A DNA stretch of 64,000 nt, from positions 248,001 through 312,000 of the forward strand of contig NZ_CP045246.1 in the NCBI RefSeq assembly GCF_035189165.1, given 5' to 3'. This DNA comes from Arthrobacter sp. JZ12 (GTDB taxonomy: Bacteria > Actinomycetota > Actinomycetes > Actinomycetales > Micrococcaceae). This document shows, piece after piece, positions 336 to 34,779 of this stretch (the first letter of the stretch is position 1; every line of letters begins with the position of its first letter). The position numbers were made by a program, and so were the translations under genes. The notes under the pieces were generated by a model. The model saw only the letters and a program-made list of their open reading frames with translations, did not search any database and was not told the DNA's origin.

Positions 336-1598
336 TTGACCGACACAAGAAAGCCGGTTTGGTCCTGGCTCATCGTGCTCGTTGTTGCCGCCCTTCTGAC
401 GCAAACGGCTTTGAACGTTGTCCGACCGGTCACCACCTACAAGCTTTTGGACCTGGGGGCCGATCCGACCGTTCTCGGTCTGATCACCGCTGCCTACGCT
501 GTGGTCCCCCTTGCTACCGCCCTCTGGTTCGGCAGGATCAGTGACCGTGTACTGGATCTTCGGTGGCTGGTTGCCGGAGGAGCGGGCTTGCTGGCGCTCG
601 GAAGCGTGGGTCTGGCCGTGGCCTCGAATATCCCGCTGGTGGGTCTTGCCAGCGCACTGCTGGGGCTCGGCCATCTGGTCTTCACCATCGCCGGACAAGC
701 ATCGGTTGCCCGCTATGCGCCGGCCGACCGGATGAACACCGGGTTTGGCTGGTTCACTGCCGCTTACTCCGCGGGTCAGCTGATTGGTCCGCTGATCGGC
801 GGTTTCCTGCTGGGTACGGAAACCGGCTCGGCGGCTGAGGGCCGCTCCGCAGGCATTGCGATCGCGCTGTGGGTCGGAGCCCTGCTGGCCTTAGCCGCGG
901 CCCCCATGATGCTCATCAGGTCTGCCGCAGGACCCGGGCGGGGCAGGCTTGAGGTTGAACAGTTGGGGCCTGAGACCGGAGAGGAACCGGCCGAGACCTC
1001 GGGCGTTCCGGCCGGCAAGGCCACGTTGGTCGGCGTCTTGAGGGTTCGGGGCGTGGCCTCGCACATGCTGGCCTCACTCGCTCTCCTTGCGATGCTGGAC
1101 ATCCTGACCGCATTCCTTCCCCTGGTAGGTGAGGCGGCTGGAGTGTCGCCGGCGGAAGTTGGGATATTGCTGGCCGTCAGGGCGATGGCGTCGATCTCCT
1201 CCCGTGTCTTCCTTCCCCGGTTGTCATTGCGCTACAGCGCACGGGCCTTGTTGCTGCTCAGCCTGTACGGCTCGGGTCTGGCGCTGATCCTTCCGCCCCT
1301 GGTGATCACTCACGTCTGGGCTGTGGTCCCACTCCTCATCCTGGGCGGGTTCTGCCTCGGGCTGGGACAACCGCTGACAATGACCCTGGTATCGATGTCC
1401 GTACCCGAAAGCTGGCGCGGCGCGGCGCTTGCGGTGCGCCTGACAGGCAACCGGGCAGGGCAGGTTGTCATGCCGTTGGTTGCCGGGCTCATCGCCGCGC
1501 CGCTCGGAGCGGCAGGAGCAATCTGGTTCACCTGCGGCGTTCTGCTTCTAAGCGGATGGGAAAAGTCCGTGCGAAGCGATCCGCCGCCCTCAGGGTGA
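336..1598 (+). CDS. MFS transporter, probable drug/metabolite exporter
   Basis: A 420-residue polytopic membrane protein of the major facilitator superfamily, probably a proton-coupled exporter. About 12 hydrophobic segments are visible. A charged central loop around residues 190-230, rich in Gly and Glu, separates the two six-helix halves. FGRISDRVLD near residue 65 matches the conserved loop 2-3 motif of the superfamily. The start is TTG, chosen because AGGAGG lies five bases upstream (325-330); no better ATG is in frame. The gene is monocistronic and converges on the degenerate ABC gene that ends 26 bases downstream. The substrate cannot be deduced. Confidence 0.8.
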   Translation: MTDTRKPVWSWLIVLVVAALLTQTALNVVRPVTTYKLLDLGADPTVLGLITAAYAVVPLATALWFGRISDRVLDLRWLVAGGAGLLALGSVGLAVASNIPLVGLASALLGLGHLVFTIAGQASVARYAPADRMNTGFGWFTAAYSAGQLIGPLIGGFLLGTETGSAAEGRSAGIAIALWVGALLALAAAPMMLIRSAAGPGRGRLEVEQLGPETGEEPAETSGVPAGKATLVGVLRVRGVASHMLASLALLAMLDILTAFLPLVGEAAGVSPAEVGILLAVRAMASISSRVFLPRLSLRYSARALLLLSLYGSGLALILPPLVITHVWAVVPLLILGGFCLGLGQPLTMTLVSMSVPESWRGAALAVRLTGNRAGQVVMPLVAGLIAAPLGAAGAIWFTCGVLLLSGWEKSVRSDPPPSG

Positions 1599-1624: not shown

Positions 1625-2347
1625 TCAGCGTCCCTTCCGCTGCCCCTCGCGCACCTCGAGGACGGACAGGGCGCCGGTTGCGTCCTCAACTGTCGACCGG
1701 CCCAGCACCGCTACCCGGTCGGCCAGGCGCAGTGCCTCGTCCATGCTGTTGGTCGCGAGCAGAACAGTGGTCGGCAGGGCGCGGTGCAGCGTCTGGAGCA
1801 CGTTGTGCAGTACGGTCCGGGCTGCACCTTCGACGGCGGCGAAAGGGTGGTCGAGCAGCATGACGCCAGGACCGCTCGCCATGGCTCGTGCCAGGGCCGC
1901 CCGCCGTGCGATTTCGGCGGTTACCTCGGCAGGAAGCAGTTTCGCGAAGCGATGAAGTCCCGCCAGGTCCATCAGCTCTGCAACCTTCGCCTTCGCCTCG
2001 CTCGCGCTGAAGCTTTTGCGCAGTCCGAGCGCGAGGTTTGCCTGCAACGAGTGTGCAGGCTGCAGGTCCGCGTCCCGCGGAGTCCAGGAGCAGCGGTCAT
2101 CGGTGTGCCGGACGGGTTCGCCGCCTACCAGCACCGAGCCGGAGCGGGGATGATCGACTCCCGCAGCGGTGCGCAGGAGGCGGGAAGCGCCGTCGTTCTC
2201 GCTGCCGACGAAAGCGAGGACTTCGCCGGCCTGGATGTCGAGGGTGACATCGCGGACGCCCTCGGCGTGCAGCTTCACGAAAGAGACCGGCAACGGCGTG
2301 GAAGCGCGCTTGAACACGTGATGGGGTGGAACCGGGCTGGTACTCAT
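1625..2347 (-). CDS. SsuB-like ABC protein lacking all ATPase motifs
   Basis: A 240-residue protein that aligns along its length with the intact SsuB-like ATPase encoded at 10986-11821 but has lost the catalytic residues. Walker A is replaced by GSENDGASR (residues 48-56, no GKS/T). The Q-loop is replaced by PRDADL (90-95). The signature is EVTAEIA instead of EVSGGMA (141-147). Walker B keeps Asp but reads LLDHP instead of LLDEP (164-168). The switch His is Asn200. Scaffold stretches such as DDRCS, KAKVAELM, ARRAALARAMA and PTTVLLAT are preserved. The start is ATG, with GGAG six bases upstream; a GTG two codons earlier is possible. I infer a non-hydrolysing pseudoenzyme, possibly regulating a sulfonate-type importer. 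It has no stops or frameshifts and keeps normal codon use, so it is not simply decaying. Confidence 0.8.
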   Translation of the reverse strand: MSTSPVPPHHVFKRASTPLPVSFVKLHAEGVRDVTLDIQAGEVLAFVGSENDGASRLLRTAAGVDHPRSGSVLVGGEPVRHTDDRCSWTPRDADLQPAHSLQANLALGLRKSFSASEAKAKVAELMDLAGLHRFAKLLPAEVTAEIARRAALARAMASGPGVMLLDHPFAAVEGAARTVLHNVLQTLHRALPTTVLLATNSMDEALRLADRVAVLGRSTVEDATGALSVLEVREGQRKGR

Positions 2348-2374
2348 CGGCACTCCGTTGGCATCCGGGATTCC

Positions 2375-2390
2375 GGGCGCTGCAGCGCCC
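2375..2390 (-). promoter_or_regulatory. 16-bp palindrome in leader of pseudo-ABC gene
   Basis: GGGCGCTGCAGCGCCC is a perfect palindrome 28 bases upstream of the pseudo-ABC start codon. It could be an operator or a leader hairpin. No poly-T follows, so it is unlikely to be a terminator. Confidence 0.3.
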
Positions 2391-2472
2391 GCCAGTAATC
2401 CCTCCTAACCTAGCCGCACCAGGACGGATCCGGGTCGCGGCGCGTTACCAACGCGTAATAAAGCGACCCAAA

Positions 2473-2676
2473 TCAGCGGCAGGGGCGTGCCGAGGGTTCC
2501 ATGGTTCGGTCGAGCGGGGTGTAGACAGCGCAGATGATGAGGCCGAGCCAGGCGCTGCGTGCAAGATCGGTCAAGCTCCAGGAGGAGAGCGGCCGGCGCT
2601 CGGCCGCCGGAACGGACGAGCGCCCGATGTACGCGAGGGCCGCGACGGTGATCCCGAGGATGATCAGGAGTGCCAT
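2473..2676 (-). CDS. Small membrane protein (67 aa)
   Basis: A short protein with an N-terminal hydrophobic helix (about residues 2-19, MALLIILGITVAALAYIG) and a second hydrophobic stretch around residues 43-54 (WLGLIICAVYTPL). The start ATG is preceded by GAAGGA. It begins two bases after the stop of another small membrane gene, so the two are probably cotranscribed. I recognise no family. A longer reading upstream in the same frame is Arg-rich and lacks a credible ribosome site, so I rejected it. Confidence 0.55.
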   Translation of the reverse strand: MALLIILGITVAALAYIGRSSVPAAERRPLSSWSLTDLARSAWLGLIICAVYTPLDRTMEPSARPCR

Positions 2677-2678
2677 TC

Positions 2679-2861
2679 CTATCGTCCTTCGGTTGCGATG
2701 CCGGAAGCGAAACTGGAGTAGGAGCGGCTCGGCAGGTCCGCGCTTCCCCATCCGCTGTGGGACTGCACCGGTGGAAGATGCCTCAGGCCGTCTGCGGTGA
2801 CGGCGTGGAGGACTGCCGCGATAAGGGCGGCCAGCAAAACCAGTACGACGACGATTTCCAT
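2679..2861 (-). CDS. Small membrane protein (60 aa)
   Basis: First gene of a two-gene unit. An N-terminal transmembrane helix (MEIVVVLVLLAALIAAVLHA) is followed by a hydrophilic Ser-rich tail of about 40 residues. The ATG is preceded by AGGAGG at a normal distance, which makes it a convincing gene despite its size. The next gene starts two bases after its stop codon. No family recognised; a single-helix regulator or subunit of a membrane complex is possible but unsupported. Confidence 0.55.
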   Translation of the reverse strand: MEIVVVLVLLAALIAAVLHAVTADGLRHLPPVQSHSGWGSADLPSRSYSSFASGIATEGR

Positions 2862-3044
2862 ACCTCGATGGTCCTCCTCGCCTTCCCCTGCCAACAGTGG
2901 CAGAAAAGACCACTATCAATAAATTACTGCCATGTTCCGAATTTCTTCGGAAAGTGCGTAACCCGGGCAGGGTAGATGTCGATTACGGGAGTGTGAGGTT
3001 GCGCCGCTCCTCCCCACAGGACGGCGCAACTTCGGCTTGGAGTC

Positions 3045-3076
3045 AAGCAACACAAGGAATAAGCAACACAAGGAGT
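3045..3076 (+). repeat. Tandem duplication carrying the ribosome-binding site
   Basis: AAGCAACACAAGGA occurs at 3045-3058 and again at 3061-3074, giving a 16-base period with two Shine-Dalgarno-like AGGA segments. The second lies directly before the ATG at 3080 and is the functional ribosome site by position. Confidence 0.85.
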
Positions 3077-3079
3077 CCC

Positions 3080-3661
3080 ATGAAGATGCACGAACGTATC
3101 AACGCCCTGAGCCTGCCCGCTAAGGTTGCGGCTCTCGCTGCAGTCATCGCCGTCGGCGGTGCCGGAGTGGCCGTCGCAGCTCCGTCCGTTGAGGGCACCG
3201 GTAAGGGCGCTGCTGACGTCAAGGCCGTCGTCGCACCTGCAGACGCTGCCGTGCCTGCGGTTCCTGCTGTGCCCGCCGTTCCCGTTCCCGGCGAAGAAGA
3301 CGTTCCGGCTGTTCCTGCCGTTCCGGCCGTCCCCGCCACCCCGGCTGTTCCGGCGGACGTATCCGTGAAGGGTGCAGCTGACGCAGAGGTGGCCGAGGAC
3401 GTCGCCGCCGATGCTGCAGCCGCTGCCAACTCCAACGGTGCCGACAACGCTTCGGTCAACGCTGCGGTGAAGGGCGATGCCAACGCCAACGCTGAGGTTC
3501 GCGGTTCGAATGTGGCCGTTCCCGCCGTTCCTGCTGTCCCCGGCGAAAACGGTGAACCGGCAGTTCCGGCTGTACCGGCCGAGGTGACCCTTCCCGAGGT
3601 TGCTGTCGGCGCCGGCGTCGAGGTTGCCGCCGAGGCCAAGATTGAGGGTTCGCGCCGCTAG
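3080..3661 (+). CDS. Secreted Ala/Val/Pro-repeat protein
   Basis: A 193-residue exported protein. The N-terminus is a typical signal peptide: MKMHERINALSLPAK, then a hydrophobic core, then VAVAA around residue 34. The mature part has two blocks of AVP repeats (about residues 54-93 and 153-175) flanking an Ala/Asn/Asp-rich centre. The composition is low complexity with no Cys, suggesting an extended wall-associated or spacer protein; no enzyme signature is visible. The ATG at 3080 is chosen over an upstream in-frame start because the AGGAG and the signal peptide both begin there. It lies just upstream of an ECF sigma factor whose membrane partner is also proline-rich, so it may be part of the same surface-stress module. 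Function unknown. Confidence 0.75.
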   Translation: MKMHERINALSLPAKVAALAAVIAVGGAGVAVAAPSVEGTGKGAADVKAVVAPADAAVPAVPAVPAVPVPGEEDVPAVPAVPAVPATPAVPADVSVKGAADAEVAEDVAADAAAAANSNGADNASVNAAVKGDANANAEVRGSNVAVPAVPAVPGENGEPAVPAVPAEVTLPEVAVGAGVEVAAEAKIEGSRR

Positions 3662-3736
3662 ATCCGGCGTCGCTAGGATTGCGGGGTCTGGGTGCGGCCC
3701 ATCAAGGCCGCACCCGCCCCCGATCGAGAGGTGTAT

Positions 3737-4297
3737 GTGAGTTCAACGCTGACGGAAGACCTGCTGGGCGCTGCCCAGGCGGGCGATACTGTCGCGCTGA
3801 ATTGCATCTACACCGAGCTCTCGCCGAAGGTTCTCGGCTACCTTACCGCGCGAGGGGTTGATGACCCCGAAGCCGTGACGCAGGACGTCTTCCTGTCCGT
3901 TTTCAGCAGGCTTTCCACCATCAGCGGAGGCGAGCAGGGCCTTCGGACGTTCGCATTTTCCGTGGCGCACGCCCGTTCCGTGGACGAGGCCCGCAAACGT
4001 TCACGACGTCCCGCAATGTACTCATACGACCCGTCTTCCGACGACCGGACGACGGCGTCCGCCGAGACCGCCGCGCTGGACCGCCTTTCCGGCGACAGGG
4101 CACTGCAGCAACTTCAGGCGCTGAAAGCGGACCAGCGCGAAGTATTGGCCCTACGGATCATCGCAGACCTGCCCCTGGAGGACGTGGCGCGGGTGGTCGG
4201 CAAATCGCCCGGCGCAGTGAAACAGCTCCAGCGCCGCGGCCTGATCAAACTCAAGCAACTCATCGTGGAAAAGGACTCGAGCAACCATGGCGCATGA
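3737..4297 (+). CDS. ECF-type RNA polymerase sigma factor
   Basis: A 186-residue sigma-70 family protein of extracytoplasmic-function size. Region 2 spans about residues 8-85; AVTQDVFLSVFSRL is the 2.1/2.2-like segment. Region 4 is near 130-180; LPLEDVARVVGKSPGAVKQL is the helix-turn-helix that reads the -35 box. Region 3 is absent, as expected. GTG 3737 is preferred over GTG 3731 because GAGAGG is then five bases away. Its last 11 bases overlap the next gene, which encodes a one-helix membrane protein, the usual arrangement for a sigma/anti-sigma pair. The regulon is unknown; the secreted AVP protein just upstream is a plausible target. Confidence 0.88.
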   Translation: MSSTLTEDLLGAAQAGDTVALNCIYTELSPKVLGYLTARGVDDPEAVTQDVFLSVFSRLSTISGGEQGLRTFAFSVAHARSVDEARKRSRRPAMYSYDPSSDDRTTASAETAALDRLSGDRALQQLQALKADQREVLALRIIADLPLEDVARVVGKSPGAVKQLQRRGLIKLKQLIVEKDSSNHGA

Positions 4298-5063
4298 TCC
4301 GTCCTCCCGGGCAGCGGTTCAGAACCTGCTTGCCGAGTCCGACGTCGCACCCTCCGAAGAGCTGACCCGAGCCCTTTCCGACCTGTCGTCGGTGGGCCGA
4401 AGGGAAGCCCCGCCCATCTCGCCGGAACTTGCCGCGGTGATGCGGCAGGCCTCCAGCGCCCCCGGCGATAACATCTCGGCCACTCCTTCCCGCACGACCG
4501 GCGAGAGCAACGTCATCCCTCTGCGGCGCGGACGGAAGGCGAGCCGCGGCGCAGCGATGGGCGGCGCCGTCGTACTGGCGATGGCGGCGGGTATTGGGGG
4601 AGTGGCGGCATTCGGACCGGACAATTCGGTTGAGTCTGCCGTGGAATCGGTGCTCCGATGGGTTGCGCCTGCTGACGCTCCTGAACCGGCCTCCGACGAC
4701 CAGCCGGCCAAGCCGGCCCCGGCGCCGGCTCAGGTAACCCCGGACTCTGTGCCAACACCCGCCCAGCCGACAGGCCCGGTCGTGACCGAGGTGCCGACTG
4801 AGGTGCCGGTGGAACGGACGGCCCCCGAACCAGGGCGGGCGCTTCCGTCGCCGACTCAGGATCGGCCGACGCCTCAGGACGCCGGCAAGCCCGAGAAGAA
4901 GGTAGTACCGCGCGTGGAGCTGCCCGAACTCCCAGTTCCCGTTCCCGACCCGGGAACGGGAAATCGGCCGGAGCTGCCCATCGATACACCGGAGCTACCG
5001 GTGCCCGGCGGCATTGGCACTACGGCTCCGACACCGGATCCGGCCCTCCGGCAGTCCCGCTGA
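4287..5063 (+). CDS. Putative membrane anti-sigma factor, proline-rich outer domain
   Basis: A 258-residue protein with a cytoplasmic N-terminal half of about 87 residues, one transmembrane helix (about residues 88-109) and an external tail of about 145 residues very rich in Pro, including ELPELPVPVPDP and PELPIDTPELPVPGG. It overlaps the sigma gene by 11 bases, so translation is probably coupled. Position, topology and a sigma partner support an anti-sigma role, but I see no HxxxCxxC zinc motif, so it is not a ZAS-type factor. The stiff Pro-rich tail could span the cell wall and act as a sensor, which is inference. Confidence 0.6.
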   Translation: MAHDPSSRAAVQNLLAESDVAPSEELTRALSDLSSVGRREAPPISPELAAVMRQASSAPGDNISATPSRTTGESNVIPLRRGRKASRGAAMGGAVVLAMAAGIGGVAAFGPDNSVESAVESVLRWVAPADAPEPASDDQPAKPAPAPAQVTPDSVPTPAQPTGPVVTEVPTEVPVERTAPEPGRALPSPTQDRPTPQDAGKPEKKVVPRVELPELPVPVPDPGTGNRPELPIDTPELPVPGGIGTTAPTPDPALRQSR

Positions 5064-10985: not shown

Positions 10986-11821
10986 CTAGTGGCCGGGAAC
11001 ACCGAGTTCGGTGAGGAGCGAGCTGCGCATTCGGCCCAGCTCGGCGGAGTTGCGGTCGCGGGGGCGGTCCCCGGGAACCGTGAGCACTTCGGCGATGGAG
11101 GCGCCGGGGCGGGTGGGATCGCTGGATTTGGCGAGCACAATGATGCGGTCGGCAAGTTGGAGGGCTTCGTCGACATCGTGTGTCACGAGCAGGACCGTGG
11201 TGGGCTGTGCCCGGTGGATGTCCAGCAGGAGGTCCTGCATCTTCAGGCGGGTCAGGGCGTCGAGGGCGCCGAACGGCTCGTCGAGCAGGAGCACCTTGGG
11301 GTTGCGGGCGAGCGCCCGGGCCAGCGACGCCCGCTGCGCCATGCCGCCTGAGACTTCGCGCGGCCGGTGCTCGGAGAAGTCGGAGAGTTCCACCAGCCCG
11401 AGGAGTTCGCTGACCTTTGCCTTGCCCTCGGCGGCGCCGGTTCCCTTGGGGAGGCCGATTGCCACGTTGGCGCGCAGCGAAAGCCAGGGGAGCAGGCGGG
11501 GTTCCTGAAAGGCGACGGCGCAGCGGTCGTCGATGCCGTTGACCGCGGTCCCGTCGATGAGGACGGCACCGCTGGTGGGGGCGTCGAGACCCGCAGCAGC
11601 GCGAAGCAACGTGGACTTGCCGCAGCCGCTGGCGCCGACAATCGCCAGTACCTCACCTGCGCGCACGTCGAGGTTGATGTCGCGTAGGACAACGTGTTCG
11701 CCGCTGCCCGTGCCGAAGGAACGGGTCAGGGAGGAGAAGGCCAGGGCAGTGCCTGCTTGGTGGCGACGCCGGACTGGATTTTGGCGGCGGCCTGCTGCTG
11801 GGCGCTGAGGACAGTACTCAT
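10986..11821 (-). CDS. ssuB: Sulfonate-type ABC ATPase with apparent N-terminal frameshift
   Basis: ATPase subunit of the importer. All catalytic motifs are intact: Walker A GASGCGKST, Q-loop FQEPRLLPW, signature VSGGMAQRA, Walker B LLLDEPFGALD and switch LLVTHDVDEA. The natural start is the ATG at 11821: GGAG lies eight bases upstream, and the SAM riboswitch ends there. Read from that ATG, however, the frame gives MSTVLSAQQQAAAK and about 15 further residues, then stops. The ATPase frame is one base out of phase and has no good start of its own. Adding one G near 11744-11750 would join them as KQALALAFSSLTRSFG. Either a real 1-bp deletion or a sequencing error; a weak internal start is the alternative. 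Confidence 0.8.
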
Positions 11822-11827
11822 TTAGAT

Positions 11828-11928
11828 CACTCCATCGCTCCTGGCAGTAGCACCCGTTCCCCTGCGATGCAGGTAAGGGTTGCTGCGGCGTCAACGATCC
11901 AGGTCTCTCGGCCGCTCGGGATGGTGAG
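11828..11928 (-). promoter_or_regulatory. SAM riboswitch (S-box / SAM-I/IV type)
   Basis: Leader of the sulfur operon. On the transcribed strand the conserved core reads CCGAGCGGCCGAGAGACC, then GACGCCGCAGCAACC, then a variable hairpin, then GGGTGCTACTGCC. These are the hallmark blocks of the S-adenosylmethionine-binding S-box clan as found in actinobacteria. Stem P1 pairs CTCACCATC (11920-11928) with GATGGAGTG (11828-11836). The GGAG in the 3' strand of P1 is the ribosome site for the ATG at 11821, so ligand binding should hide it and block translation. I cannot separate the SAM-I and SAM-IV subclasses by eye. Confidence 0.85.
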
Positions 11929-13274: not shown

Positions 13275-14921
13275 GTGGGTTCTGCACGGGTTGGTCTTCC
13301 ACGCCTGTTCGACGGCGACCGCGGGCGCGTCCTGGTGCTGCTGGTTGCAGCGGGCCTGGGGCTTGCCTGCCTTGCCGGTGGAACTGCCGTCCTGATGACC
13401 GTACTGCTGGGTGGTGATGTTCATCCGGTGGGGGTGGCACTTGCTGGAGGTGGGCTGGTGGCCGCGGCGGCCGGCGTCGGCTTCCTTCGCTCCGCCGAGC
13501 GGGTGCTGGCCGAGCGTCTTGGCCAGAGCTACATCCAGCAGATCCGCTTGGGACTGCTCGACTCCGCGCTGGCCTCCGATCGCCCGCCGGCGCCCGGCAT
13601 CACCATCGCGCGCGCAACGAACGACCTGACGAGTGTGCGCAACTGGATCGCGCTCGGCATTGCACCGATGATGTCCGGCATTCCGCTGATCCTCGGTTCG
13701 GTGTGCGCGCTCATGGTGCTGCACCCGGTCCTGGGGGCGGCCGCTGCGGTTCCGCTCCTACTCCTGACCGGTGCCCTGATGCTGATGGCCCGGACTGCGT
13801 TTGCCCGGGCGCGGGTGGTGCGCAGGAAGCGGGGCCGGCTGGCATCGCTCCTGGCCGACACGATCGCCGCCGCCCCCTCCGTCCGTGTGGCAGGCGGGCG
13901 CCGGCGCGAGGTGCGGCGCATCGAAAAGGCGGGGTCCGCCGTCGTCGATGCTTCCGTTCACCGGGCGGAAGTCGCCGGCTGGATCCGGGGTGCCGCCGCG
14001 GCAGCCGGAGCGCTGACGGTCGCCGCTGTCGGCCTTGTAGGTCTCTGGCAGCAGCTTCCCGCGGCAACAGTGGCGGGAGCGCTCACGATCGTCGGACTGC
14101 TGGCCACGCCGGTAGCGGACATGGGGCGCGCGGTCGAGTACCGCCAGAACTTCAGGGCGGCCCGCCGCATCCTGGCTCCGGCGCTCGCAGAAACCGGAAC
14201 GACGGCGGCGGGTGCGGTGCGGAGGCAGCCGCCCGTGAGCGCGCCCCCCAAAGGGACGGGTGTCGTCTCGATCGCGTCCGGAAGTGGGGACGACGTCGTC
14301 GTCGGGCTTCCGCTGACGGCGCGGCCAGGCGAAGTGGTGGAGGTCCGCTCAACGGACCCGGCCAGAGTCGATGCGCTCTTCAGCCGGATTGTCGGCCTGA
14401 GCGATCCGGGTGCCCTGCAGGTGTTCGTCGACGGGGTGGAGCTTGGGTCAGCATCGTTCCGGGCGCAGCGGGAGCGCGTGGGCTATGCCGTGGCGGGCAT
14501 GGCCTTGGAACGGGGGACGATCGAGCGTGCGGTGCGCTATCGCCGGCCGGACCTTGACCCCGCTGAGGGGGAGCATGCCTTGGCCCAGGCCGGTCTTGGT
14601 GCCGCGATCGGATCCCTGCCGAAGGCCGAGCGCACCGAGCTGCGGCGGGGCGGGGAGCCTTTGTCGGTATCGGACAAGGCGCGGCTCCTGGTGGCGCGCG
14701 CAGCGCTTGGTGAGCCCGCGCTGCTGGCCCTCAACCGGATCGACGCCGAGCTCGACGACGATGGCCGCGCCATGCTCCGCCGCCTGATCGAGAACTATCC
14801 CGGAGTGGTGCTGGTGTCCTTCGCCCGGCCCGAGGGCCCGCTGCTTCTGCGTGACGGGGTGGGACCGGTGGTGTGGGACCTCGATGAGCTTCCATGTGGC
14901 TTGAGCGGTGAGGGAACCTAA
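13275..14921 (+). CDS. ABC exporter-like protein with degenerate nucleotide-binding domain
   Basis: A 548-residue half-transporter. About residues 15-285 form a six-helix exporter domain, including RATNDLTSVRNWI, a coupling-helix region typical of type I exporters. The C-terminal domain should be an ATPase but lacks every key residue: GEVVEVRSTDPARVD replaces the Walker A region (352-366), LRRGGEPLS replaces the signature (456-464), LLALNRIDAELD replaces Walker B (483-494, no DE), and the switch His is Phe516. The flanking helix LLVARAALGEPALLAL is still recognisable. GTG start with AGGGG upstream. It follows a P-loop protein, which could supply or replace NTP binding; a catalytic partner ABC subunit encoded elsewhere is the other option. 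Its stop overlaps that of the convergent permease gene. Confidence 0.75.
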   Translation: MGSARVGLPRLFDGDRGRVLVLLVAAGLGLACLAGGTAVLMTVLLGGDVHPVGVALAGGGLVAAAAGVGFLRSAERVLAERLGQSYIQQIRLGLLDSALASDRPPAPGITIARATNDLTSVRNWIALGIAPMMSGIPLILGSVCALMVLHPVLGAAAAVPLLLLTGALMLMARTAFARARVVRRKRGRLASLLADTIAAAPSVRVAGGRRREVRRIEKAGSAVVDASVHRAEVAGWIRGAAAAAGALTVAAVGLVGLWQQLPAATVAGALTIVGLLATPVADMGRAVEYRQNFRAARRILAPALAETGTTAAGAVRRQPPVSAPPKGTGVVSIASGSGDDVVVGLPLTARPGEVVEVRSTDPARVDALFSRIVGLSDPGALQVFVDGVELGSASFRAQRERVGYAVAGMALERGTIERAVRYRRPDLDPAEGEHALAQAGLGAAIGSLPKAERTELRRGGEPLSVSDKARLLVARAALGEPALLALNRIDAELDDDGRAMLRRLIENYPGVVLVSFARPEGPLLLRDGVGPVVWDLDELPCGLSGEGT

Positions 14922-33813: not shown

Positions 33814-34779
33814 ATGCTCAGGAAAGTCGCCGTCGTCGTCCTGCCGGGGGTCACTCCGTTCGAGTTCGGAGTGGCCTGTGAGATTTTCGGGCTGGATCGT
33901 TCCGCCCGCGGAGTAGGCATCCCGGCCTTCGAGTTCTCGATTTGTTCGCCGTCCCCCGGGCTCGTTCCCAGCAGTCTCGGCTTCTCGATTTCCGTGGAAG
34001 AGGACCTCGGCGTGACCGAGACGGCCGACCTGATCATCATGCCGCCTTTCGGCGATGACGCTCCCGGCCAGGAGGAGGTGCATCGTGCACTTCGGTCCGC
34101 CCACCAGCGCGGTGCCTGGATCCTTTCCGTCTGCAGCGGCGCCTTCGCCCTTGCCGAAGCAGGACTCCTCAACGGCCGGCGGGCCACCACCCACTGGCTG
34201 CACTCCCACCGCCTGGCCGAACAGTACCCCGAGGTCACCGTGGACGAGAACGTCCTCTACGTGCAGGACGGGCACATCATCACCAGCGCCGGAACGGCCG
34301 CAGGAATCGATGCCTGCCTGCATCTGGTACGGACCGAAATCGGAGCCACCGCGGCAACCAGCATTGCCCGGTCCATGGTGGTCCCACCGCATCGGGCAGG
34401 CGGCCAGGCGCAGTACATCGATCGGCCCATCCCGGTGGGACAGTGCGACACCCTCGAGCACGTGCTGGTCTGGATGGACGCCCACCTGGAGGAGGAACAC
34501 TCGGTCAGGGCGCTGGCCGCGCGCGCACACATGTCGGAGCGCACCTTCGCCCGGCGCTTCAAGGCGGAGACGGGTACGACGCCGGCCGCCTGGCTGACTG
34601 CGCAGCGTGTCCTTCGGGCGCAATCACTGCTGGAGGAGACTGATCTCAGTATCGAAGCCATTGCCCGCGAGACTGGATTCGGGCAGGCCGTGCTGCTGCG
34701 CCATCACTTCCAGCGCTCGCTCGGCACCAGCCCGGCAGCCTATCGGAGGACGTTCCGAGGCGTCTTGGAGCCCGCCTAG
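33814..34779 (+). CDS. GlxA-family transcriptional regulator (DJ-1/PfpI + AraC HTH)
   Basis: A 321-residue protein. Residues about 5-175 are a DJ-1/PfpI-like domain with SVCSGAFALAEAGLL, where Cys occupies the nucleophile-elbow position. Residues about 220-318 are the AraC-type double HTH: SVRALAARAHMSERTFARRF then TDLSIEAIARETGFGQAVLL. Members regulate diverse catabolic genes. ATG with no strong ribosome site; it could be translated from a short leader. Followed by a small CoA-binding protein gene. Confidence 0.87.
   Translation: MLRKVAVVVLPGVTPFEFGVACEIFGLDRSARGVGIPAFEFSICSPSPGLVPSSLGFSISVEEDLGVTETADLIIMPPFGDDAPGQEEVHRALRSAHQRGAWILSVCSGAFALAEAGLLNGRRATTHWLHSHRLAEQYPEVTVDENVLYVQDGHIITSAGTAAGIDACLHLVRTEIGATAATSIARSMVVPPHRAGGQAQYIDRPIPVGQCDTLEHVLVWMDAHLEEEHSVRALAARAHMSERTFARRFKAETGTTPAAWLTAQRVLRAQSLLEETDLSIEAIARETGFGQAVLLRHHFQRSLGTSPAAYRRTFRGVLEPA

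What the first reader, a model, noticed from the sequence alone, without database searches (positions are those of the whole stretch)
1625..2347. ABC ATPase homologue with every catalytic motif replaced
Aligned with the intact SsuB at 10986-11821, this protein keeps the scaffold (AGEVLA, DDRC, KAKV.EL, ALARA, TTVLLAT) but changes Walker A (GSENDGASR), Q-loop, signature (EVTAEIA), Walker B Glu (LLDHP) and switch His (Asn). All five sites changed while the frame stayed open, which argues for selection as a non-hydrolysing protein. A pseudo-ATPase related to a sulfonate importer has, to my knowledge, not been described.
Basis: partly seen in the sequence, partly recalled or inferred. Interest (0 to 1): 0.8.

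Follow-up and report, generated by a model that had tools for sequence, protein, structure and literature searches.

The report
Conserved dead paralogue of SsuB
A group of Arthrobacter bacteria keeps, under strong selection, a free-standing relative of a nutrient-pump motor protein in which every ATP-using part has been replaced, so it is a maintained non-motor protein whose job is still unknown.

Summary
Confirmed and extended. Window 1625-2347 (-) encodes a 240-residue ABC-cassette protein, a diverged paralogue of SsuB. Walker A Lys, Q-loop Gln, signature, Walker B Glu, D-loop and switch His are all replaced; the A-loop segment is deleted. It is not decay: 18 protein clusters and 8 of 38 genus genomes carry it (open frame in 8 of 8), and all 18 clusters lack the motifs that 42 of 42 SsuB rows have. 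Core dN/dS is 0.064, against 0.076 for SsuB of the same 7 genomes. Only the dead P-loop (0.54) and the tails (0.34 each) are relaxed. Twenty-nine positions switched from one fixed residue in SsuB to another here, 19 of them at the former Q-loop, signature, D-loop and switch regions. The predicted fold is ABC (pLDDT 86). SsuB is its ancestry, not an obligate partner: G013 keeps the gene (80% identity) though no SsuB or SsuC orthologue was found; G036 keeps it without the linked small membrane ORFs and regulator. Best reading: a maintained pseudo-ATPase acting through nucleotide-independent protein contacts, partner unknown.

The parts
1625..2347 (-). pseudo-ATPase gene (240 aa, ABC_tran fold, all nucleotide-handling motifs replaced)
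2407..2412 (-). TAGGTT, -10-like element; TARRTT at this place in 8 of 8 genomes (by eye); candidate promoter of the pseudo-ATPase gene alone
   Evidence: upstream alignment of 8 genomes; promoter function inferred
2473..2676 (-). TM2, 67-aa ORF with one hydrophobic N-terminal stretch; conserved just upstream in 7 of 8 genomes
2679..2861 (-). TM1, 60-aa ORF with one hydrophobic stretch; conserved upstream of TM2 in 7 of 8 genomes
2892..2932 (-). near-invariant 41-bp operator-like element (TGGCAG ... CTGCCACT) before TM1; its 25-base core has one match within 3 mismatches in this genome
33814..34779 (+). AdpA/GlxA-type regulator (DJ-1/PfpI + HTH_18), probable regulator at the element before TM1; its orthologue lies divergent to TM1 in other species
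   Evidence: regulation inferred
10986..11821 (-). ssuB, paralogue (about 50% identical); motifs complete, but the conserved ATG at 11821 is in another frame than the body
11829..11927 (-). SAM riboswitch before ssuB (not before the pseudo-ATPase)

Best explanation
The gene encodes a free-standing ABC pseudo-ATPase: a paralogue of SsuB-type importer ATPases that changed fast once, lost ATP binding and hydrolysis (inferred from sequence), and has since been held by purifying selection as a folded non-enzyme. It most likely acts as a nucleotide-independent protein-protein module (adaptor or decoy) through the former ATP-dimer face, whose catalytic residues were replaced by new fixed residues, together with the still-conserved helical subdomain. 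Shown here: all motifs lost, ABC fold predicted, selection, presence without a detectable SsuB/SsuC orthologue in one genome and without TM1/TM2 and the regulator in another. Inferred: no ATP binding, and that the newly fixed face is a binding surface. Among partners, the ATPase or membrane subunits of other ABC importers (a decoy giving an inactive complex) seem about as likely (0.35) as an unrelated partner.
Against: No partner identified; no linked gene was seen in all 8 hosts. Residues around the Q-loop that I recall as the membrane-subunit docking pocket are changed (Phe, Leu, Trp), which speaks against ordinary docking on an importer. The model used an alignment with 11 intact SsuB-type rows among 29, which biases it to the ABC fold. 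dN/dS is pairwise Nei-Gojobori at pS near 0.55-0.6, pairs not independent; G018 is more diverged at the protein level (pN 0.21-0.23) than its SsuB (0.09-0.19). ATP binding was not measured.
Confidence: 0.8

Rival explanations
1. Dedicated regulator or dominant-negative partner of the SsuBC sulfonate importer, binding SsuC or SsuB to shut the importer.
For: Derived from SsuB-type ATPases; lies within about 10 kb of ssuBAC in 6 of 8 genomes.
Against: G013 keeps it at 80% identity with no detectable SsuC and no SsuB-like match (pseudo-ATPase as query). In draft genome G018 it is on another contig than ssu. Supposed docking residues are changed.
Confidence: 0.08
2. Decaying duplicate of ssuB, on the way to a pseudogene.
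For: Loss of every catalytic motif; relaxed P-loop with insertions of 3 to 15 residues in 4 of 18 clusters.
Against: Open in 8 of 8 genomes; core dN/dS no higher than that of SsuB; new residues fixed in 18 of 18 at dead sites (Q-loop Arg, signature Ala-Glu-Ile, D-loop Val-Glu, switch Asn-Ser).
Confidence: 0.02
3. Third part of a TM1-TM2-pseudo-ATPase membrane complex controlled by the AdpA/GlxA-type regulator.
For: TM1 and TM2 lie directly upstream on the same strand in 7 of 8 genomes, behind a conserved element. In G027, which has no pseudo-ATPase, TM1-TM2 precede a motif-complete ssuB.
Against: In G036 TM1, TM2 and the regulator were not found in the genome nor the element in 25 kb around, yet the gene is kept (pN 0.047 to G031). 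The gene has its own -10-like element in 8 of 8, and by eye a 9-10 bp inverted repeat separates TM2 from it in G013, G018 and G035. TM1 or TM1-TM2 stand beside the regulator in species without the gene.
Confidence: 0.15
4. A soluble sensor or scaffold unrelated to transporters, with a new ligand or partner at the old nucleotide pocket.
For: New fixed residues at the Q-loop, D-loop and switch positions.
Against: The P-loop, which would frame such a pocket, is the least constrained part of the core and takes insertions; the Walker B Glu place varies between His, Asn and Asp.
Confidence: 0.3

Closest known systems
SsuB / NitT-TauT importer ATPases (SsuB, NrtC, NrtD, CmpC, CmpD)
   Same: Fold, about 50% identity to genus SsuB, 76 shared fixed positions
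   Different: None of the nucleotide-handling motifs; A-loop segment absent; found in a genome without a detectable SsuC
Degenerate nucleotide-binding sites of ABC exporters; extreme case Pdr5 NBS1 of yeast (PMC7756269, passages seen)
   Same: All motifs of one site replaced yet the protein is kept; making all four motifs canonical abolished Pdr5 activity, so degeneracy is useful there
   Different: Pdr5 has a second site in the same transporter; here the cassette is a separate protein that lost both its Walker half and its signature half, so it could not complete any site in a dimer
Pseudoenzymes in general (pseudokinases, pseudo-GTPases; recalled, no call)
   Same: Conserved fold, dead site, constraint moved to other surfaces
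   Different: Different folds; several of those have assigned partners

Membership tests
ABC nucleotide-binding domain fold (ABC_tran, PF00005) | Profile match above the curated cut-off and ABC fold | tested here: met
Functional ABC ATPase / SsuB | Walker A Lys, Q-loop Gln, LSGGQ-type signature, Walker B Glu, D-loop, switch His | tested here: not met
   None of the six sites canonical in any of 18 clusters; one cluster keeps the signature Ser alone
Functional ABC ATPase / SsuB | A-loop aromatic before the first strand of the cassette | tested here: not met
   9-residue segment absent in 18 of 18; that this segment holds the A-loop is inferred from its place
SsuB of a sulfonate importer | Works with SsuA and SsuC | tested here: not met
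   Presence only, not function: G013 has the protein but no SsuC orthologue; SsuA was not searched
Degenerate-site half of an ABC heterodimer | Supplies a signature motif or a Walker half-site to a partner site | tested here: not met
   Signature, D-loop and Walker residues are all replaced
Degenerate-site half of an ABC heterodimer | Forms a dimer with a canonical NBD | not testable with these tools
   No complex prediction or interaction data
Pseudoenzyme | Dead active site with purifying selection on the fold across species | tested here: met
Pseudoenzyme | No catalysis in vitro | not testable with these tools
   needs purified protein

The most novel reading that the evidence does not exclude
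An importer ATPase subunit was rebuilt into a free-standing, nucleotide-independent interaction module: the ATP-sandwich face was re-specified as a permanent binding face, and the protein outlived its own transporter. It may act as a decoy that disables other ABC importers.
Probability: 0.35. Interest if true: 0.75.

Novelty: new variant of a known kind. Interest (0 to 1): 0.58.

Why it matters
ABC cassettes are among the commonest bacterial protein domains (recalled) and are annotated as ATPases by profile alone: 3 of the 4 named clusters here are called ATP-binding or ATPase. A selected cassette kept across species without any ATP motif shows that the fold can be kept for something else. It offers a natural system (8 host genomes, relatives without it, one host without a detectable SsuB or SsuC) in which to find out what that is.

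Tried and rejected
Decay: rejected by open frames and dN/dS. My first whole-gene SsuB figure (0.133) was inflated by unequal N-termini, among them the out-of-frame start of the window's ssuB; the like-for-like core figure is 0.076. Obligate Ssu partnership: rejected on G013. SAM-riboswitch control of this gene: at window 2300-3080 only a chance-level snoRNA match, E 0.96. In the G027 TM2-ssuB gap no family reached its gathering score, although the sequence looks S-box-like to the eye. Origin: one clade, but its sister is unresolved because of the long stem; grouping with G027 SsuB is not rejected (AU p 0.445), grouping with SsuB of its own hosts is nearly so (p 0.069). I first took the 8 hosts for one clade; a purL DNA tree of 30 of 38 genomes groups 7 of them (98/96) and leaves G018 unresolved near G027. 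The FAD/ALO oxidase near the gene in 7 of 8 hosts (one to four genes away in some) has relatives in 29 of 38 genus genomes (E <= 1e-60), so it is not specific. PADLOC: one weak partial match, mad3, 31.9 bits, not pursued. Literature: the rows shown (20 of 95 papers; 15 of 143; 25 of 3,043; 10 of 22) named no stand-alone, fully degenerate importer ATPase; this is the held open-access library only, and most rows were seen as titles and abstract starts. Family search scored 9 candidates per genome at E <= 1e-50. The structure was predicted once, with SsuB rows in the alignment.

Full report
OBSERVATION. The frame at 1625-2347 (-) is open; the ATG and a GGAG before it are found in 8 of 8 aligned genomes. 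It is an ABC_tran protein (55.8 bits) whose nearest relative in the same genome is the window's SsuB, 50% identical over 201 residues. I aligned 18 relatives with 42 distinct SsuB-type rows (54 tree rows less 8 pseudo-ATPase rows, 2 distant ABC rows and 2 duplicates). Every catalytic position is intact in 42 of 42 SsuB rows and replaced in 18 of 18 relatives: Walker A Lys to Ala/Gly/Thr, Q-loop Gln to Arg, SGG of the signature to T-A-E (one cluster keeps Ser), Walker B Glu to His/Asn/Asp, D-loop Leu-Asp to Val-Glu, switch His to Asn. Nine residues at the place of the A-loop are missing in all 18. Kept are the Walker B Asp (18/18) and the first Gly and the Ser of Walker A (17/18 each).

THE COMPARISON PROTEIN. 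The window's ssuB is not cleanly intact: the conserved start (ATG 11821) is in another frame than the motif-bearing body and meets a stop after 31 codons. The body keeps all motifs and is about 90% identical to G036 SsuB. Whether the break is real is unknown; ssuB is in frame in G036, where ATG and body are read together. The finding does not rest on the window's copy.

CONSERVATION. A search of 5.8 billion proteins (only the 7,996 candidates sharing most words were scored) gave 18 such clusters at 64-100% identity, then a drop to intact SsuB-type proteins at 51% and below (E <= 1e-30). In the genus 8 of 38 genomes have the gene. Of 295 genomes sampled from the family, only 4, all of this genus, score above SsuB level. 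No intermediate with some motifs left was found; the most distant copy (G018, 65%) has none either. Nei-Gojobori dN/dS, whole gene: median 0.094, range 0.053-0.181, 28 pairs. Like for like over residues 32-218 in the same 7 genomes (21 pairs each): 0.064 against 0.076 for SsuB. By region: P-loop 47-56 0.543, N-tail and C-tail 0.338 each, helical subdomain 99-139 0.032, residues 179-197 0.000. The core is held about as tightly as that of SsuB; only the dead P-loop, with insertions of 3 to 15 residues in 4 of 18 clusters, and the tails drift. Against this reading: G018's copy is further away (pN 0.21-0.23) than its SsuB (0.09-0.19). pS is 0.5-0.7 for most pairs, so the ratios are approximate, and pairs share branches.

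WHAT CHANGED. In 29 columns one residue is fixed here (at least 17 of 18) and another in SsuB (at least 90% of 42); 19 of the 29 fall in the Q-loop (5), signature (6), D-loop (5) and switch (3) regions, 20 with one in Walker A (grouping mine). Twenty columns fixed in SsuB are loose here, and 20 fixed here are loose in SsuB. So, apart from the P-loop and the Walker B Glu place, the old ATP-dimer face has not just been abandoned: it was re-specified and fixed again. Hence the inference of a nucleotide-independent binding face. The AlphaFold model (29 rows, 11 of them intact SsuB-type) has pLDDT 86.0 and pTM 0.83 and matches importer NBDs.

ORIGIN. The 8 proteins form one clade (100/100) among SsuB-type proteins on a stem of 3.4 changes per site. 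Its sister is unresolved: G027 SsuB p 0.445, own-host SsuB p 0.069. In G027, which lacks the gene, related TM1 and TM2 ORFs (48% and 57%) and the element (34 of 41 bases) precede a motif-complete ssuB. A plausible history, not shown, is a copy of ssuB behind TM1-TM2 that diverged there.

SURROUNDINGS. In 6 of 8 genomes the gene lies within about 10 kb of ssuB-ssuA-ssuC-acs-metY-CoA_binding; in G013 and G018 it does not. It shows no SsuC orthologue (best 36%) and, with the pseudo-ATPase as query, no SsuB-like match (next best 84 bits, 35%); SsuA and a direct SsuB query were not run. TM1 and TM2 lie just upstream in 7 of 8 genomes. Before TM1 is a 41-bp element (TGGCAG ... CTGCCACT) matching its consensus at 37-41 of 41 bases in the six other loci that have it and at 28-34 of 41 in G027, G023, G022 and G005, where a DJ-1/PfpI plus HTH_18 regulator is divergent to TM1. 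The element resembles the AdpA box TGGCSNGWWY (PMC8653842, passages seen), but position 5 differs. In the window that regulator is at 33814-34779. G036 shows no TM1, TM2 or regulator in the genome and no element in 25 kb around the gene, but keeps the gene. Between TM2 and the gene, 8 of 8 genomes have TARRTT about 60 bases before the start, and 3 of 8 an inverted repeat in front of it (by eye). I read this as a separate promoter, so the gene need not belong to the TM1-TM2 unit.

FUNCTION. A cassette with neither Walker half nor signature should not power or complete an ATP site. It could be a decoy, adaptor or scaffold. Since no linked gene is present in every host, its partner is probably encoded elsewhere. 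I put 0.8 on a maintained non-catalytic protein acting by contacts and about 0.35 on action on other ABC systems. Pdr5 of yeast shows that a fully degenerate site can be needed inside a transporter (PMC7756269, passages seen), but there it is part of a chain with another site. AdpA has been linked to sulfane-sulfur stress in Streptomyces (PMC9952706, abstract and outline seen); that is only a lead.

CONTROLS AND LIMITS. Of the 30 best ABC_tran matches of this genome (83 listed), 28 pass a Walker A plus Walker B pattern and 2 have canonical Walker A by eye; the sample favours intact ones. A purL tree of 30 of 38 genomes groups 7 hosts (98/96), with G018 unresolved. Literature searches saw capped lists from the held open-access library.

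Noticed in passing
window 11726-11821 (-), start of ssuB: The conserved ATG and first ~26 residues of SsuB are in another frame than the rest of the protein; the ATG frame stops after 31 codons.
   Followed up: partly
window 13275-14921 (+): ABC half-exporter with a recognisable membrane region (PF00664, 28.8 bits) but no recognised nucleotide-binding domain; by eye no Walker A, Walker B Glu or switch His. Only G000 of 38 genus genomes has it at E<=1e-40, yet 152 proteins incl. itself match at E<=1e-20, and 115 of the 120 listed carry no PF00005; named ones seen are actinobacteria. A wide family of degenerate half-exporters worth its own study.
   Followed up: partly
window 2892-2932 (-) and 33814-34779 (+); L103, L104, L106, L107: AdpA/GlxA-type regulator with a conserved element in front of one or two small membrane ORFs; divergent neighbours in other species, 31 kb apart in the window; regulator and ORFs both not found in G036.
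   Followed up: partly
window 2473-2861 (-): Two small ORFs (60 and 67 aa), each with one hydrophobic stretch; 34 protein clusters for the second; no Pfam match.
   Followed up: partly
window 3080-5063 (+): Secreted-looking PAVPAVPA-repeat protein followed by an ECF sigma factor and a possible anti-sigma protein; of the 8 host loci, seen near the pseudo-ATPase in G000, G036 and G031.
   Followed up: no
left of the window, G000:C1:245982-247238, and window 336-1598 (+): FAD/ALO-domain oxidase (alditol-oxidase-like, name recalled) near the pseudo-ATPase in 7 of 8 hosts; in G000 an MFS transporter sits between them.
   Followed up: partly
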